DNA of 63,548 bases from a virus: IMG/VR virus record IMGVR_UViG_3300042691_028591, positions 1 through 63,548 of that record. One strand, 5' to 3'. Below are positions 41,186 to 50,546 of this stretch, piece by piece (the stretch's first letter is position 1; each line of letters opens with the position of its first letter). The position numbers and the translations under genes are program-made. The notes under the pieces were generated by a model that worked only from the letters and a program-made list of their open reading frames with translations, was not told the DNA's origin and ran no database searches.

Positions 41186-44100
41186 ATGTTAGTTGAATTT
41201 GAGTTAAATAAAGAAGAACAAGATATTAAACCTGACTTTGGTCCTGTAGGTTCTATTGTTGATATTAGAACATATAGAAGATGGCTGCCAAATAAAAAAA
41301 GAAGAGAGACATTTGTAGAAAGAAATGCAAGAGTAGTAGATGCTAATTTAGACCTTGTTAAAGATATTATTAGTGATCAAGAGTATGAGTTAGAAAGATC
41401 TACTATGATGGATCATATGAATAAATTACTAGCTCTGCCTTCTGGTAGAAGTATGTGGATTGCAGGCACTGAAGCTAATAAAAAACATCCTGCTTCATCC
41501 TTCAATTGTTCAGCTTTAGCTATTAATAGAATAGAAGCTTTTACAACTGTATTTGAACTGTTAATGCTTGGTACTGGTGTTGGATTTAGAGTGTTTGGCT
41601 CTGATATTAATGAGCTGTCAAATATTAAGAAGTTTGATATATTGTTTGATTCTTATAACCCAAAGCCTAAACATGAGAGAATTGAAAGTACCATTGTAAG
41701 TTATTCTAAGAATGCAACTATTGTACAGGTTGGGGATAGTAGAGAAGGATGGATACATGCTTTACACGCTCTCTTAGAAATAGCTTTTTGTATAAATAAA
41801 GATACGTCTATCTCATTTAATTTTGATTCTGTTAGACCATTAGGTGAGAGAATTAATGGTTTTGGTGGCACGGCTAGTGGTCATGAAGCATTAAAGAATT
41901 TGCTTAAAGATGTCTTTGATATCTTTAATGAATGTCCGGATAGTAAGCTTAGAAGTATTGATTGTTTAGATATTTGTTGTGCTATTGCTAAGGGTGTTGT
42001 AGCTGGTAATACTAGAAGATCTGCATTACTTTGTCTCTTTGAAGAAGGTGATGACCTAATGGCCAATGCTAAGGTAAACCTATTTGATGATCCTACTTTA
42101 AAGGGTAAGTATTATAGAATTCAAAGTAATAATACTGAAGCATTAGGCACCCCTTATTTATCTGAATTAAGAGAGTTTCTAGAAGCCAATCCAGATGTTT
42201 CTAAAGAAGATTTATTCAAGTTTATTGATAAGTACAAACCTTCTGTTGAATGGTTAAAAGAAAGATTTAAAGTAATTGCTAATGCTGGTGATCCAGGCTT
42301 TGCTAACTATTTGAAGATGGTTGGTAAGAAGTGGTTAGCTGTTAGAAAGCACAGACCTGATTTTGATGTTAAGAAAATCTGGGAATATTTTTGTGATATT
42401 TGTACGAACCCATGCCACGAAATAATTTTGTCTGTAGGTTATAAAGATGGTAAAGGAACTGGATTTTGCAATTTAACAACTCTTCCAATTAATAAATTTG
42501 TTATTAAAAAATGTAATAATAATGATTTATGTGCAGTTACTGGTTATAAGCTAGATGAGAAAGCTTTAGAACAAGCTATTAAACTTACAGTTAGAATAGC
42601 TACAAGACAAACCTTTGTTACTATGCCTAGAGCTGAACTAGATGATACTCAGAAAGCTGAAAGATTGTTGGGAGTGTCAGTCACTGGTTGGATTCAATTA
42701 TTTAATAAACTAGATTTGTCTTATACAGAACAAGAAGACTTAATGACTAAGTTAAATGACTGGGCTAATGATGAAGCAACTACATATGCTAATAAGTTAG
42801 GTATTGAAAGACCCTTAATGGTGTGTTGTATTAAACCAGAGGGGTGCGGAAAAATTTCACATATAAGAACAACAACTGAAGGTTTATTAAGAGTTGATGA
42901 GATCGGAGATGTATCTAAATTAGGTTTTAATAAAGTTGATACAAACAATACAACAACTAAAGGATTTTCTATTAGAAGTGTATATAATAACGGCTTATCT
43001 AAAGTTGTAAAAATTAAACTAAACAATGGAAGAGAATTAGTATTTACACTCCAACATCCTTTTAGTGTAAATGGTTTATGGAAAAATGCTGTTAATTTAA
43101 AGAAAGGCGATGTATTAGATATTGAATTAGATACTTATAATAAAGTAACTAATGAATTACTAGCAAATTACAGTGCTAAATATAATCATTTAAGAAAAGA
43201 AGATTTATTATTTCCTAAAGAAATAACTAATGATTTATCTTGGTGGGTTGCTAGTGTATTTGCTAATGGTAGTGTAACTAATCATGCAATTAGTTTCTAT
43301 TCAGGATATATAGAAGTAGTACAAAAGTTTGTTGATTTAAGCAATAGTTTATTTAATATTTCTACTGTTGCTACAAAAGATAAAATAAAAGATATGTATA
43401 GGGTAAATATTAATTCTACAGATTTAGTTGAATATTTAAAGCTTAATGGTTTATTAAAGACAAAAAACTTTACTATTCCTCTTATTATTAGAAGATCTAG
43501 TAGAGAAGCTTTACTATCTTTTATTTGTGGTTATTTAGATAATGATGGCTGCTTTAAAAACAAAGGATGTAGTATTACTACAAAGAATGAAAACTTTGCA
43601 AGAATGTTACAAGAAGTTGGAGAAGCAGTAGGGCTATCATTTAGTTGTTATGATTATACAAGAGAAACAACTAAAAGTATTGGCATTTATTATGACTTAC
43701 AGTTAAGTAGAACTTATTCAACTAATAGAGCTATTGATTTTATTAACAGTAATAGTATTAAAGCTAAATTAAATGGCTTTATTATTTCAAGTGATAAGAG
43801 TCATAAAAATCCTTATAAGGTTGATAGTGTTGAAGTATTAGAAGAGTTAATTAACACTTATGATATAGAAGTAGATGATCCTCATTGGTATTATCAAGGT
43901 GGTATTAAATCGCATAATACTGGCTCTAAAGTATTAGGCTCTTCTAGTGGAGTTCATTGGGATTGGGCACCTTATTATATTAATAGAATTCAAATGGGCG
44001 CTAATGATGCTCTTGCTAAGACATTAAAAGATCAGGGCTTTAGCTGGATTCCAACTCCTTATGATTTACTTAAACTATATAATGATCAAGTTGAAGTGTT

Positions 44101-44707
44101 TAGTAATAATAATGTTATTAGATTATTTCAAAGGTTATTAGTTAGGTTTAATATTACTAAATCAAAATATGAGCCAAAGTTTAAAGATGTTTGGAGTAGA
44201 ATTGAACACTTTAGATCTCTAACTGATAAGGATAAACAAGAAGCCTTTAACAATTCTAATGCAGTTTTATTTGAGTTTCCTGTTAACTCTGGTATGGTTG
44301 AATCTCAAGGTAGTGTAAGTGCTAGTAGACAGTTGCAAAATGTACTTAGATTTACTGATTGTTATGTTGATCATATGGTGTCTTCTACTATTACAGCTAA
44401 AGAAGATGAATGGGATAACTTAGCAGAAGAGTTACATCAAGAAAAGAATTGGTTTAGATTTATTAATGCGGCCTTCTTATCTTATTACAGTGGTAATCAT
44501 CCTCTTCTTCCTAATGAAGAAATAACAGAAGAAGTCTATAACAAGATGATGTCTTCTTTCAAGCAGTCTGAGTGGGTTAAAGATGGCAAGTTCTATGTCA
44601 ATGAAGATCTATTAGCTAAATTAGAACAAGCAGCTTTAAGAGCTAATGTTGATATTGATGATGTTGATTTAGGTGCTTCTTGTCAAGGGGCATGTCCCGT
44701 CCGTTAA
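41186..44707 (+). CDS. nrdJ: class II (B12-dependent) ribonucleotide reductase with intein
   Basis: 1173 aa, of which 358 are an intein (residues 554-911). The mature enzyme has FNCSALAI (first redox Cys), MLGTGVGFRV, the active-site NPCHEI (about residue 410), then KPEG joined to TGSKVLGSSSGVH, and a C-terminal redox pair SCQGACPVR. No NrdB gene is near, consistent with an adenosylcobalamin-dependent, single-chain enzyme of the RTPR type. It makes deoxynucleotides for phage replication and needs host-made B12, fitting a cobalamin- or pseudocobalamin-producing host. Confidence 0.92.
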   Translation: MLVEFELNKEEQDIKPDFGPVGSIVDIRTYRRWLPNKKRRETFVERNARVVDANLDLVKDIISDQEYELERSTMMDHMNKLLALPSGRSMWIAGTEANKKHPASSFNCSALAINRIEAFTTVFELLMLGTGVGFRVFGSDINELSNIKKFDILFDSYNPKPKHERIESTIVSYSKNATIVQVGDSREGWIHALHALLEIAFCINKDTSISFNFDSVRPLGERINGFGGTASGHEALKNLLKDVFDIFNECPDSKLRSIDCLDICCAIAKGVVAGNTRRSALLCLFEEGDDLMANAKVNLFDDPTLKGKYYRIQSNNTEALGTPYLSELREFLEANPDVSKEDLFKFIDKYKPSVEWLKERFKVIANAGDPGFANYLKMVGKKWLAVRKHRPDFDVKKIWEYFCDICTNPCHEIILSVGYKDGKGTGFCNLTTLPINKFVIKKCNNNDLCAVTGYKLDEKALEQAIKLTVRIATRQTFVTMPRAELDDTQKAERLLGVSVTGWIQLFNKLDLSYTEQEDLMTKLNDWANDEATTYANKLGIERPLMVCCIKPEGCGKISHIRTTTEGLLRVDEIGDVSKLGFNKVDTNNTTTKGFSIRSVYNNGLSKVVKIKLNNGRELVFTLQHPFSVNGLWKNAVNLKKGDVLDIELDTYNKVTNELLANYSAKYNHLRKEDLLFPKEITNDLSWWVASVFANGSVTNHAISFYSGYIEVVQKFVDLSNSLFNISTVATKDKIKDMYRVNINSTDLVEYLKLNGLLKTKNFTIPLIIRRSSREALLSFICGYLDNDGCFKNKGCSITTKNENFARMLQEVGEAVGLSFSCYDYTRETTKSIGIYYDLQLSRTYSTNRAIDFINSNSIKAKLNGFIISSDKSHKNPYKVDSVEVLEELINTYDIEVDDPHWYYQGGIKSHNTGSKVLGSSSGVHWDWAPYYINRIQMGANDALAKTLKDQGFSWIPTPYDLLKLYNDQVEVFSNNNVIRLFQRLLVRFNITKSKYEPKFKDVWSRIEHFRSLTDKDKQEAFNNSNAVLFEFPVNSGMVESQGSVSASRQLQNVLRFTDCYVDHMVSSTITAKEDEWDNLAEELHQEKNWFRFINAAFLSYYSGNHPLLPNEEITEEVYNKMMSSFKQSEWVKDGKFYVNEDLLAKLEQAALRANVDIDDVDLGASCQGACPVR
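42845..43918 (+). mobile_element. intein with LAGLIDADG-type endonuclease in RNR
   Basis: Begins at Cys 554 (CGKISHIRTTTEG) and ends at His-Asn (residues 910-911, GGIKSHN) before Thr +1. Block B is TLQHPFSVNG; block F is YDIEVDDPHWYYQGGIKSHN. Endonuclease motifs are SWWVASVFANGSV (degenerate) and SFICGYLDNDGCF. The insertion splits KPEG/TGSKVLGSSSG, a strongly conserved nucleotide-binding segment. The first motif lacks the usual Gly-Asp, so nuclease activity is uncertain; splicing residues are intact. Confidence 0.93.
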
Positions 44708-47351: not shown

Positions 47352-47945
47352 ATGGCTAAAAGAGTTACAAGTAAAGTAGTAGGACTTGGTAGTAAAGGAT
47401 TTACTCATGCTCACAATGGTGAAGATAATGAACCTATTACTCTTAGAAAAGATCATATTACTTGTATAGTACAAGCTCAAGTAGATTTAACTAATGCTTG
47501 GTTAGGTAATGTTAAAAGATTTTATAAGGCTGATGATTTTGAATATTTTCTATTAGATACTTTACAAGACTGTATGATGAACATAGGAGCAATGATTTTT
47601 ACTCCTAAATATGCTTGTTATGAGGTTAATACAGAAAATGTTATTAATACTCTATTAGAAAGACTAACTGTAATAAATAATAATTTATTACCTACAGAAT
47701 TCATTAAATATGGTGCTGATGAGATAAGTTCTTTTTGGGGCCTCTTAACAACTCAAGTTAGATTGTTAGAGACTCAATGGGTAAAATGGATGAATGAAGC
47801 TTCTATTGTTGATAGTAAAAGAGATCAATATGAACTACAAGAAGAACTAATAAACTTAATTAGTAAGTGGTCTTATAGTGAATGTAGATATTATTGTAAA
47901 ATGAAAGGTTTACTAGTTAATACTTGGGAATCCAAACATGATTAG
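47352..47945 (+). CDS. hypothetical protein, 197 aa
   Basis: Helical, with Trp and Leu repeats; a Gly-rich N-terminus (KRVTSKVVGLGSKGF). No known domain. Stop overlaps the next ATG. Confidence 0.6.
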   Translation: MAKRVTSKVVGLGSKGFTHAHNGEDNEPITLRKDHITCIVQAQVDLTNAWLGNVKRFYKADDFEYFLLDTLQDCMMNIGAMIFTPKYACYEVNTENVINTLLERLTVINNNLLPTEFIKYGADEISSFWGLLTTQVRLLETQWVKWMNEASIVDSKRDQYELQEELINLISKWSYSECRYYCKMKGLLVNTWESKHD

Positions 47946-49323: not shown

Positions 49324-49914
49324 ATGAATTATATAAAAATACTATGTCAATGTTGTGGAAATCCTAAAGATATAGTCAAAGGAGAATACAACAGAAAATT
49401 GAGATTAGGAACTAAGTTTTATTGTTCTAAGAAATGTTCCTATGAAGATAATAAACATTTACTTATAGAAGGATCTATAGAATATTCAAAGTCTGAAAAA
49501 GGTATTAAACATCTAAATAACATAAGACCTATAAGACCTGCTGAACCCTTTAATTATTTCTTAAGAATAAAAACTAGAAGGACTAAACAAGAATTTAAGA
49601 TTTCAATTGAATATCTAAAGGAGTTATGGGCTAAACAGAATGGTCTGTGTGCTATATCTAATTTACCTTTAGAATTACCTCATGGTGTTGAGGGATTTAG
49701 CACCGTAAAACCTTTTAATGGTGCTTCTTTAGACAGAATTAATTCTAATTATGGTTACATTGAAGGTAATGTACAATTTGTTTGTATGGGTATTAATTTT
49801 ATGAAAAATGATTGGAATCAAGATTATATTAAAGATTGGATATTAGCAATGTCTAAGTCAGTACTTGACAAATATAAAGAAGTATTAGATAATAATAAAG
49901 TTATTGAAGTCTAA
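49324..49914 (+). CDS. HNH-type endonuclease next to tmRNA
   Basis: N-terminal zinc-finger-like Cys pairs (CQCCGNP ... FYCSKKCSYED). The C-terminal half has the pattern GLCAISNLPLEL ... ASLDRINSNYGYIEGNVQFV, typical of HNH nucleases of the phage/cyanobacterial type. Its last codons (GTCTAA) also form one strand of the proposed tmRNA P2 helix, so coding and RNA gene overlap. A TTGACA-17-GATAAT promoter for the RNA lies within its 3' end. Confidence 0.78.
   Translation: MNYIKILCQCCGNPKDIVKGEYNRKLRLGTKFYCSKKCSYEDNKHLLIEGSIEYSKSEKGIKHLNNIRPIRPAEPFNYFLRIKTRRTKQEFKISIEYLKELWAKQNGLCAISNLPLELPHGVEGFSTVKPFNGASLDRINSNYGYIEGNVQFVCMGINFMKNDWNQDYIKDWILAMSKSVLDKYKEVLDNNKVIEV
49865..49893 (+). promoter_or_regulatory. 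sigma-70 promoter for tmRNA/tRNA-Trp
   Basis: TTGACA (49865-49870), 17-bp spacer, GATAAT (49888-49893) inside the HNH coding sequence, about 12 nt before the tmRNA acceptor piece. Confidence 0.7.
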
Positions 49915-49959
49915 AAAGTAGTCTGGTACACGGCGGCTTCAATGCCCCCAGATCCACTT
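49905..49959 (+). ncRNA. ssrA: permuted tmRNA, acceptor (3') piece
   Basis: The sequence ends GGCTTCAATGCCCC (T-arm region) followed by CAGATCC-A, whose CAGATCC (49949-49955) pairs with GGGTCTG at 50035-50041, the 5' end of the coding piece. GTCTAA (49909-49914) pairs with TTAGAC (50069-50074) as a P2-like helix. The 3' half precedes the 5' half, so the gene is circularly permuted as in some cyanobacteria and alphaproteobacteria. The T stem has a mismatch; CCA is not encoded. Confidence 0.75.
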
Positions 49960-50033
49960 ATTTCAGTAGTGTAACGGTAGCATAAGAGTCTCCAAAACTT
50001 TTGGTAATAGTTCAAATCTATTCTGATTTGCCA
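49960..50033 (+). tRNA. tRNA-Trp (CCA)
   Basis: Anticodon arm AGAGT-CTCCAAA-ACTTT gives anticodon CCA. T arm AATAG-TTCAAAT-CTATT, D arm GTGT...GCAT, encoded 3' GCCA with the Trp discriminator G. The acceptor stem has two T.T mismatches (ATTTCAG/CTGATTT). It fills the intervening segment between the two tmRNA pieces: its 3' CCA ends 1 nt before the tmRNA 5' end. Confidence 0.8.
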
Positions 50034-50034
50034 A

Positions 50035-50176
50035 GGGTCTGAAAGGTTTCGATGCTAGAAATAACTAATTAGACATGCTTAGTAGTTTTATGAATGAAAA
50101 GCTAGGTGACAGAAAAATAAATGGCAACGTTAAAAATAATATTGTTAGCTTCTCTAAAGCACCTGTTTTAGCCTAA
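50035..50176 (+). ncRNA. ssrA: permuted tmRNA, coding (5') piece with tag
   Basis: The start GGGTCTGAAAGGTTTCGAT is the tmRNA 5' signature (acceptor strand plus TTCGAY D-loop). The tag frame runs through GTT AAA AAT AAT to GCC TAA (50174-50176), encoding VKNNIVSFSKAPVLA; the resume codon is probably GGC 50123 or AAC 50126. The tag core recalls marine cyanobacterial tags such as ANKIVSFSRQTAPVAA (from memory). tmRNA with SmpB rescues stalled ribosomes and tags products for proteolysis. Confidence 0.82.
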
Positions 50177-50188
50177 CAATAAATGAAA

Positions 50189-50216
50189 GGAGTAGTAGAA
50201 AATACTACTCCTTTTT
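50189..50216 (+). terminator. intrinsic terminator of tmRNA operon
   Basis: GGAGTAGTA (50189-50197), 5-nt loop, TACTACTCC (50203-50211), then TTTTT. Confidence 0.88.
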
Positions 50217-50243
50217 AAGTCTTAAATTATTTAAAAGAAATTA

Positions 50244-50546
50244 ATGAATAATAAAAAACTAAAGAAAAGACATTTTAGTAAAGAAATAAGACTCTGCTTT
50301 GTTAATAATAAAGCAGACTTAATTAGTAAACTTATTGAAATTTTAACTCAAGAGTTACCAGAAGATATTGATAGTATAAAAAAGTTTGGTTTTAATTTAG
50401 ATAATAGTTTGCCTCTTTTAAATTGTGATTTTCATGTTGATTATTCAGGCTTTGAAACCTCAGAAGAATATAGAGAAAGACTAAAACTATTAACTGAATT
50501 AGCTGATGAGTTTAATTATTTAGAGAAAAATCATGGCCAGAACTAA
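50244..50546 (+). CDS. hypothetical protein, 100 aa
   Basis: Basic N-terminus then helical, acidic C-terminus; no family. Overlaps the next gene by 14 nt. Confidence 0.55.
   Translation: MNNKKLKKRHFSKEIRLCFVNNKADLISKLIEILTQELPEDIDSIKKFGFNLDNSLPLLNCDFHVDYSGFETSEEYRERLKLLTELADEFNYLEKNHGQN

What the first reader, a model, noticed from the sequence alone, without database searches (positions are those of the whole stretch)
49905..50216. Phage-encoded circularly permuted tmRNA with a tRNA-Trp inside its intervening segment
Seen: the acceptor-strand CAGATCC (49949-49955) precedes and pairs with GGGTCTG (50035-50041); GTCTAA/TTAGAC forms a P2-like helix; the tag frame encodes VKNNIVSFSKAPVLA; a promoter and a terminator bracket the unit. 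A tRNA-Trp with encoded CCA occupies the gap, ending 1 nt before the tmRNA 5' end. Known: permuted two-piece tmRNAs occur in some cyanobacteria and alphaproteobacteria. Inferred: tRNA processing by RNase P/RNase Z could free the tmRNA ends, and the phage may use tmRNA to manage ribosome stalling. I know of no description of a tRNA nested in a permuted tmRNA.
Basis: partly seen in the sequence, partly recalled or inferred. Interest (0 to 1): 0.92.

Follow-up and report, generated by a model that had tools for sequence, protein, structure and literature searches.

The report
tRNA gene nested inside split tmRNA
A virus that probably infects cyanobacteria carries a ribosome-rescue RNA gene written in two swapped pieces, with a complete transfer-RNA gene filling the gap between them, and the same arrangement, with other transfer RNAs, turns up in other viral DNA akin to cyanobacterial viruses.

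Summary
49960-50033 is tRNA-Trp(CCA). Its flanks form a circularly permuted tmRNA: 49949-49955 pairs 7/7 with 50035-50041, P2 is present, and the tag frame 50123-50176 is open. Rfam RF04321 aligns over its whole model across the tRNA, but at 31.8 bits, below its curated 47. A model trained without the window has its only match in the window here. This copy is divergent: T-loop of 6, one C·C mismatch.

The nesting recurs. Of 60 permuted cyanobacterial-type tmRNAs on virus contigs, collected without selecting for tRNA, 48 have a 6-10 nt gap and 12 have 82-91 nt; each of the 12 holds one sense tRNA, Asn or Tyr. Others hold Trp, or Trp+Met. Isolate S-CAM1 is a natural empty site, 95.1% identical in the core. 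The tree needs at least nine changes of state.

One precedent is in print: tRNA-Ala in a nominally archaeal permuted tmRNA (PMC11915505). Most likely, processing of the tRNA also frees the tmRNA ends; this is inferred.

The parts
49865..49893 (+). promoter-like site TTGACA-17-GATAAT, inside the 3' end of the upstream HNH gene
   Evidence: 11 of 12 consensus; the scan as a whole finds no excess over shuffles
49907..49956 (+). tmRNA acceptor piece: P2 strand, T-arm (6-nt loop, 4 of 5 pairs), acceptor 3' strand and discriminator A49956; true 5' end not known
   Evidence: RF04321 alignment, model R1, reading of the sequence
49909..49914 (+). P2 strand GTCTAA; overlaps the stop codon (49912-49914) of the HNH gene
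49949..49955 (+). acceptor stem 3' strand CAGATCC, pairs 7/7 with 50035-50041
49957..49959 (+). CTT in the place of the CCA tail; directly followed by the tRNA
49960..50033 (+). tRNA-Trp, anticodon CCA, discriminator G50030, encoded CCA 50031-50033; two U-U mismatches in its acceptor stem
   Evidence: ARAGORN; Rfam tRNA 50.0 bits, gathering 29
50035..50041 (+). acceptor stem 5' strand GGGTCTG = predicted 5' end of the tmRNA coding piece
50035..50185 (+). tmRNA coding piece: acceptor 5' strand, D-loop GGTTTCGA (50045-50052), P2 strand, pseudoknot-like segment, tag frame; 3' end not known
   Evidence: RF04321 to 50176; 82.5% identical over 57 aligned columns to phage Pam2; sequence
50069..50074 (+). 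P2 strand TTAGAC
50123..50176 (+). tag reading frame GNVKNNIVSFSKAPVLA and stop TAA; likely resume codon GGC
50186..50214 (+). terminator-like hairpin, 12 pairs, then T run
   Evidence: listed on the minus strand; the hairpin is symmetric and CCTTTTT ends it on the plus strand

Best explanation
This is a divergent, cyanobacterial-type, circularly permuted tmRNA gene of a cyanophage-like virus whose short intervening sequence has been replaced by a whole tRNA-Trp gene. Shown by sequence: order acceptor piece, tRNA, coding piece; pairing of the two tmRNA pieces across the tRNA; an open tag frame; the same architecture with other tRNAs in related phages; natural empty sites in relatives. Inferred: one transcript is made. 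RNase P cuts at the tRNA 5' end (before 49960), which also leaves the tmRNA acceptor piece with only a 3-nt 3' tail to be trimmed before CCA is added. RNase P cuts again at the coding-piece 5' end (before 50035), which leaves the tRNA with its encoded CCA plus one nucleotide. The two tmRNA pieces stay joined by the acceptor stem and P2 and work in ribosome rescue with host SmpB. The gap of a permuted tmRNA is thus a permissive site where a tRNA costs no extra promoter and no extra processing signal, and tRNAs come and go there.
For: RF04321 31.8 bits, E = 7.5e-5, full model 1-213. R1, trained on 31 cyanophage-type units (eight of them nested) without the window, has its single hit in 63.5 kb at 49907-50118. 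tRNA. Of 77 cyano-tag stretches, 60 are permuted by my criterion: 48 with gaps of 6-10 nt and 12 (8 distinct gap sequences) with 82-91 nt, all 12 with one sense tRNA. Other nested units: L174 (Asn), L267 (Trp+Met), L293 (Trp, after an 87-nt spacer). RF01851 or RF04321 or both pass gathering in all eight other nested loci given: L353, L400, L174, L386, L393, L436, L293, L267. Helices on 35 loci chosen by me, 32 distinct rows, window included: 99.2% of cells paired, 19 of 24 pairs changed on both sides, 0 of 500 shuffles. S-CAM1 lacks the tRNA-Tyr in an otherwise 95.1% identical core. At least 9 changes of state on the tree, 6 forced by starred branches. The PA-SR01 tmRNA has a homologous tag AKNNICQFSRKAAPVAA and a near-identical Rfam score, 31.9 bits. 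Two further contigs differ from the window's unit by one base.
Against: The window copy is below Rfam's gathering score. The T-loop is 6 nt with a C-C mismatch in the stem. Isolated pieces give no hit. Model R1 also gave 23.1 bits to another, tRNA-like stretch of Pam2 (L002 1280-1403) and 24.2 and 24.0 bits to partial matches in L203 and L123, which hold other tmRNAs, so 24.5 bits alone is not decisive. Pam2, the best BLAST relative of the coding piece, has no tmRNA hit at its own site: not at gathering, not in Rfam up to E = 0.1, not with R1, not by ARAGORN; its tmRNA rests on my reading and the homology of its tag. The tRNA acceptor stem has two U-U mismatches. There are no RNA data, and the host is inferred only. 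In the tree the window row is on a very long branch (2.46), so its place is unsure.
Confidence: 0.78

Rival explanations
1. The tmRNA is a decaying relic: only the tRNA-Trp works, and the tmRNA pieces persist around it as flanking remains.
For: Score below gathering, 6-nt T-loop, C-C mismatch, unusual resume codon GGC, no hit on isolated pieces.
Against: Acceptor stem is 7/7 with its own base combination, the tag frame is open and ends in VLA with a stop, the pseudoknot-like segment is shared with Pam2 and PA-SR01; two further contigs differ by one base. PA-SR01 scores equally low (31.9 bits) yet keeps a tag ending in VAA. Pam2 does not score at all, so decay in this whole group is not excluded.
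Confidence: 0.15
2. The tRNA copy is the dead part: a tRNA gene that landed in the gap and now serves only as a spacer.
For: Two U-U mismatches in the tRNA acceptor stem. Many other phages have gaps of 59 nt and more without a tRNA call, so a spacer as such is tolerated.
Against: No other non-standard pair is marked in the Rfam alignment; anticodon CCA, G73 and the CCA tail are present. In the cyano-tag set each of the 12 long gaps is a tRNA and none is another sequence of that length.
Confidence: 0.12
3. Chance: a tRNA-Trp with flanks that happen to resemble tmRNA ends.
For: 7/7 acceptor complementarity plus T-arm without the D-loop motif occurs by chance about once in three Markov windows (7 in 20); R1 gave 23-24 bits elsewhere.
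Against: With the D-loop motif 0 in 200; RF04321 E = 7.5e-5; homologous tag and 82.5% identity to Pam2 over 57 columns of the coding piece.
Confidence: 0.03

Closest known systems
Permuted two-piece tmRNA, cyanobacterial type (Rfam RF01851, RF04321)
   Same: Order of pieces, acceptor and P2 pairing, D-loop, tag of the NNIV type; eight relatives with nested tRNA pass the gathering score of one or both
   Different: The intervening sequence is a tRNA gene; the window copy itself is below the curated scores and has a 6-nt T-loop
tRNA-Ala in the intervening sequence of permuted tmRNA GCA-2688965__sp002688965.2 (PMC11915505)
   Same: An intact tRNA gene inside the intervening sequence of a permuted tmRNA; the paper calls it a unique feature (passage read)
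   Different: A nominally archaeal metagenome bin, one case, tRNA-Ala; here viruses, several tRNA kinds, 18 contigs, with empty sites
Phage two-piece tmRNAs, e.g. of phage Melnitz (PMC9004378)
   Same: Phage-encoded permuted tmRNA; 53 two-piece cases by ARAGORN, 50 of them from aquatic samples (passages read)
   Different: No tRNA in the gap is mentioned in the passages read; Melnitz's is of alphaproteobacterial type
tmRNA of cyanophages S-CAM1, S-CAM3, S-SSM7, Sf-FS3 and of Pseudanabaena phages PA-SR01 and Pam2 (no tmRNA in the annotation shown)
   Same: Permuted form and tag type; PA-SR01 and Pam2 are the nearest named relatives found for the window's coding piece
   Different: Short gap without a tRNA; Pam2 and PA-SR01 by reading only
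tRNA punctuation in organelle transcripts (recalled, from no call)
   Same: tRNA processing would free the neighbouring RNAs
   Different: Here the neighbours are the two halves of one RNA

Membership tests
permuted two-piece tmRNA | 3' tRNA-like half upstream of the 5' half, with 7-bp acceptor stem | tested here: met
   49949-49955 with 50035-50041, 7/7
permuted two-piece tmRNA | T-arm with TTC loop next to the acceptor strand | tested here: inconclusive
   TTCAAT loop of 6 instead of 7 and 4 of 5 stem pairs
permuted two-piece tmRNA | D-loop GGTTTCGA after the 5' acceptor strand and P2 helix joining the pieces | tested here: met
   P2 covaries in the aligned relatives
permuted two-piece tmRNA | tag reading frame with stop, downstream of a resume codon | tested here: met
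   GNVKNNIVSFSKAPVLA; homologous to PA-SR01 and Pam2 tags; resume codon GGC where the Rfam consensus has GCA
permuted two-piece tmRNA | transcript matures into two RNAs that act in trans-translation | not testable with these tools
   needs RNA from infected cells
Rfam RF04321 as curated | score at or above the gathering score of 47 bits | tested here: not met
   31.8 bits for the window; met by all eight other nested loci tested
tRNA-Trp | cloverleaf above the Rfam gathering score, anticodon CCA, G73 | tested here: met
   50.0 bits against 29, ARAGORN, G50030; two U-U mismatches in the acceptor stem
group I intron form of tmRNA | group I intron in the T-loop | tested here: not met
   no group I intron listed for 49850-50260 up to E = 10

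The most novel reading that the evidence does not exclude
tRNA-punctuated tmRNA is a recurrent viral gene form. In cyanophages the intervening sequence of the permuted tmRNA is a docking site for tRNA genes (Trp, Asn, Tyr, Trp+Met). They are gained and lost repeatedly and stand in sense in every case found (12 distinct gap sequences). The nested tRNA supplies the cleavage sites that make both tmRNA ends, so that ribosome rescue RNA and a translation tRNA are made one-to-one from one transcript.
Probability: 0.45. Interest if true: 0.75.

Novelty: new variant of a known kind. Interest (0 to 1): 0.62.

Why it matters
It gives the gap of permuted tmRNA genes, so far treated as discarded RNA, a content and a possible role. 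It shows on 18 virus contigs (12 distinct gap sequences) what was printed as a unique oddity of one metagenome bin. Near-identical units with and without the tRNA make processing directly testable. [quoted passage not shown]

Tried and rejected
L215 first looked like a nested tRNA-Ile. Reading it showed a tRNA-Thr whose end mimics an acceptor strand, followed by a short tmRNA-like RNA without tag; it was dropped. L158 and L199 were flagged by the loose criterion and dropped: L158 has a 6/7 acceptor 435 nt away, and L199 has a standard tmRNA downstream. The strict criterion (7/7 pairs, T-arm at least 4/5, no downstream acceptor) removed them.

An alphaproteobacterial origin was rejected for the cyanobacterial type by tag and relatives. 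Chromosomal cases: the one genome-contig scan gave 42 stretches, 0 nested; it required a tRNA with CCA and the D-loop motif, so it does not show absence. Single-sequence folding was uninformative. A group I intron in PA-SR01's split T-arm was suspected, but Rfam found none up to E = 0.1. Microcystis 'phage' MaAM05 and Microcoleus phage My-WqHQDG were looked at for a nested unit: only the annotation was seen, and it lists no tmRNA beside the tRNAs.

Counts and drops: the scan was complete (77 stretches); 17 of the 77 are not permuted by my criterion and were not sorted further (contig ends, mismatches or other forms). L059 starts inside the unit and is not counted; its contig is counted through L376. 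In one search identical rows were merged and two rows were too short and dropped (L383, L426), leaving 48. The S-SSM7 row that I meant to add to the alignment was not included. One search used 35 loci chosen by me.

Full report
What is there. The window is an IMG/VR virus record of 63,548 bases. At 49907-50185 lies a permuted tmRNA gene with a tRNA in its gap. The acceptor strand CAGATCC (49949-49955) pairs 7/7 with GGGTCTG (50035-50041). A P2 helix joins 49909-49914 and 50069-50074, and GGTTTCGA (50045-50052) follows the 5' acceptor strand. The frame 50123-50176 reads GNVKNNIVSFSKAPVLA and a stop. Between the two pieces ARAGORN and Rfam find tRNA-Trp, 49960-50033, anticodon CCA, 50.0 bits. 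The tRNA starts 4 nt after the acceptor strand (discriminator A and CTT) and ends 1 nt before the coding piece.

How sure is the tmRNA. Rfam's permuted model RF04321 aligns over its whole length, 49907-50176, with part of the tRNA as an insertion: 31.8 bits, E = 7.5e-5 in 411 nt, below its curated 47 bits. Isolated pieces give no tmRNA hit. I built model R1 from 31 cyanophage-type units, eight of them nested, that do not include the window. In the whole window it finds one place, 49907-50118, 24.5 bits, rough E = 9.5e-4. This is not decisive alone: R1 also gave 23.1 bits to another, tRNA-like stretch of phage Pam2, and 24.2 and 24.0 bits to partial matches in loci that hold other tmRNAs. The combined anatomical signature occurs once in the window and in 0 of 200 Markov copies; without the D-loop motif it occurs 7 times in 20 copies. 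The window's weak points are a 6-nt T-loop, a C-C mismatch in the T-stem and two U-U mismatches in the tRNA acceptor stem. Single-strand folding is uninformative, z = -0.84.

Relatives of the window. Two further contigs of 86 and 129 kb are 99.9% or more identical over the stretches compared; each differs from the window's unit by one base. A fourth contig, of 108 kb, encodes a 100% identical neighbour protein over the part it holds but has no match to the unit; it starts inside that gene. The DNA polymerase is nearest to Microcystis phages, about 28% identity. The coding piece matches Pseudanabaena phage Pam2, 82.5% over 57 columns. Pam2 and PA-SR01 encode homologous tags, AKNQIVKFARKSTPVAVAV and AKNNICQFSRKAAPVAA, where no tmRNA is annotated; the window has six extra bases at the start of the tag. 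PA-SR01 scores 31.9 bits with RF04321, nearly the same as the window, so a low score is not peculiar to the nested copy. Pam2's own site gives no hit with Rfam, R1 or ARAGORN; its tmRNA rests on reading and on the tag.

The arrangement recurs. A scan of viral contigs for cyanobacterial-type tags, with no tRNA in the pattern, gave 77 stretches. By the strict criterion 60 of these are permuted. In 48 the gap is 6-10 nt; in 12 it is 82-91 nt. Each of the 12 long gaps (8 distinct sequences) holds exactly one tRNA in sense, Asn(GTT) in six contigs and Tyr(GTA) in six; the 48 short ones have no room for one. Outside that scan: L174 (Asn), L267 (Trp and Met side by side, 216 kb contig) and L293 (Trp after an 87-nt spacer, 105 kb contig). 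With the three contigs of the window's species that makes 18 contigs and 12 distinct gap sequences. Of eight other nested loci given to Rfam, all pass the gathering score of RF01851 or RF04321 or both with the tRNA in place. L300 and L293 have Synechococcus phages as their nearest named relatives. For L267 the 12 listed of 15 matches lie on tRNA genes only.

Empty sites. A tRNA-Tyr unit (L386) aligns to the isolates S-CAM1 and S-CAM3 on both sides of the tRNA, which is missing there. The cores of L386 and S-CAM1 are 95.1% identical. S-SSM7, S-SSM6a, Sf-FS3 and S-CAM3 carry tmRNAs with no tRNA call in the gap. On a tree of 48 cores without the gap, filled and empty units are mixed: at least 9 changes, 6 forced by well supported branches. 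The four helices, including the acceptor stem that spans the tRNA, covary on 32 distinct rows: 99.2% of cells paired, 19 of 24 pairs changed on both sides, 0 of 500 shuffles as high; slid versions reach 43.6-61.3% paired. The alignment was fitted to the model, which leans it towards the structure.

How it probably works. [quoted passage not shown] PMC3978253 names RNase P and tRNase Z for the gap of permuted tRNAs (passages read). With a tRNA in the gap, RNase P at the tRNA's 5' end would at the same time release the acceptor piece with a 3-nt tail, and RNase P at the coding piece would release the tRNA with CCA plus one nucleotide. This is inference. So is use in ribosome rescue, and so is the host, a cyanobacterium. 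A promoter-like and a terminator-like element flank the unit, without statistical weight for the promoter.

Novelty. Phage two-piece tmRNAs are known (PMC9004378, passages read). A tRNA-Ala in the gap of a permuted tmRNA of a nominally archaeal bin is described as a unique feature (PMC11915505, passage read). My six searches of the paper library (listings; passages of five papers) showed no other report; subscription papers and preprints are not covered. The recurrence in viruses, the several tRNA kinds, the empty sites and the all-or-none gap lengths in the cyano-tag set appear to be new.

Noticed in passing
L215, minus strand, about 8308 of the reverse complement (IMGVR_UViG_3300006149_000023): A roughly 80-nt tmRNA-like RNA without tag region directly after tRNA-Thr and tRNA-Ile; resembles the tag-less form that PMC11915505 mentions for phage DS6A.
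   Followed up: partly
L002:1280-1403 (Pseudanabaena phage Pam2, ON014754.1): T-arm and acceptor strand CTCGCCC precede GGGCGAG and a D-arm-like stretch after about a dozen nt: looks like a circularly permuted tRNA or tag-less permuted tmRNA, some 0.5 kb before Pam2's unannotated tmRNA.
   Followed up: partly
L447 (Pseudanabaena phage PA-SR01, MT234670.1), coding piece from 463: The T-arm halves GAGGGTTCGATT and CCCTC of its permuted tmRNA appear to lie some hundreds of nt apart, as if an insert sat in the T-loop; no group I intron hit up to E = 0.1.
   Followed up: partly
L363, L351, L197, L157 and others: Gaps of permuted tmRNAs in phages with other tags hold a tRNA T-arm-like motif, in L363 nearly a whole tRNA without a proper anticodon arm; possible tRNA relics. 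Most were selected by the pattern.
   Followed up: no
window 49324-49914: Gene matching phage endonuclease families (endonuclease VII and HNH types) whose stop codon overlaps the P2 strand of the tmRNA; perhaps a homing endonuclease beside the tmRNA.
   Followed up: no
window 41186-44707 and 47352-47945: B12-dependent ribonucleotide reductase with intein-like and LAGLIDADG-like domains, and a cobalamin adenosyltransferase-like gene.
   Followed up: no
MW495066.1 37690-38865: Record named Microcystis phage MaAM05 shows tRNA-Trp, secE, nusG in an order known from bacteria (recalled); the record may be bacterial.
   Followed up: no
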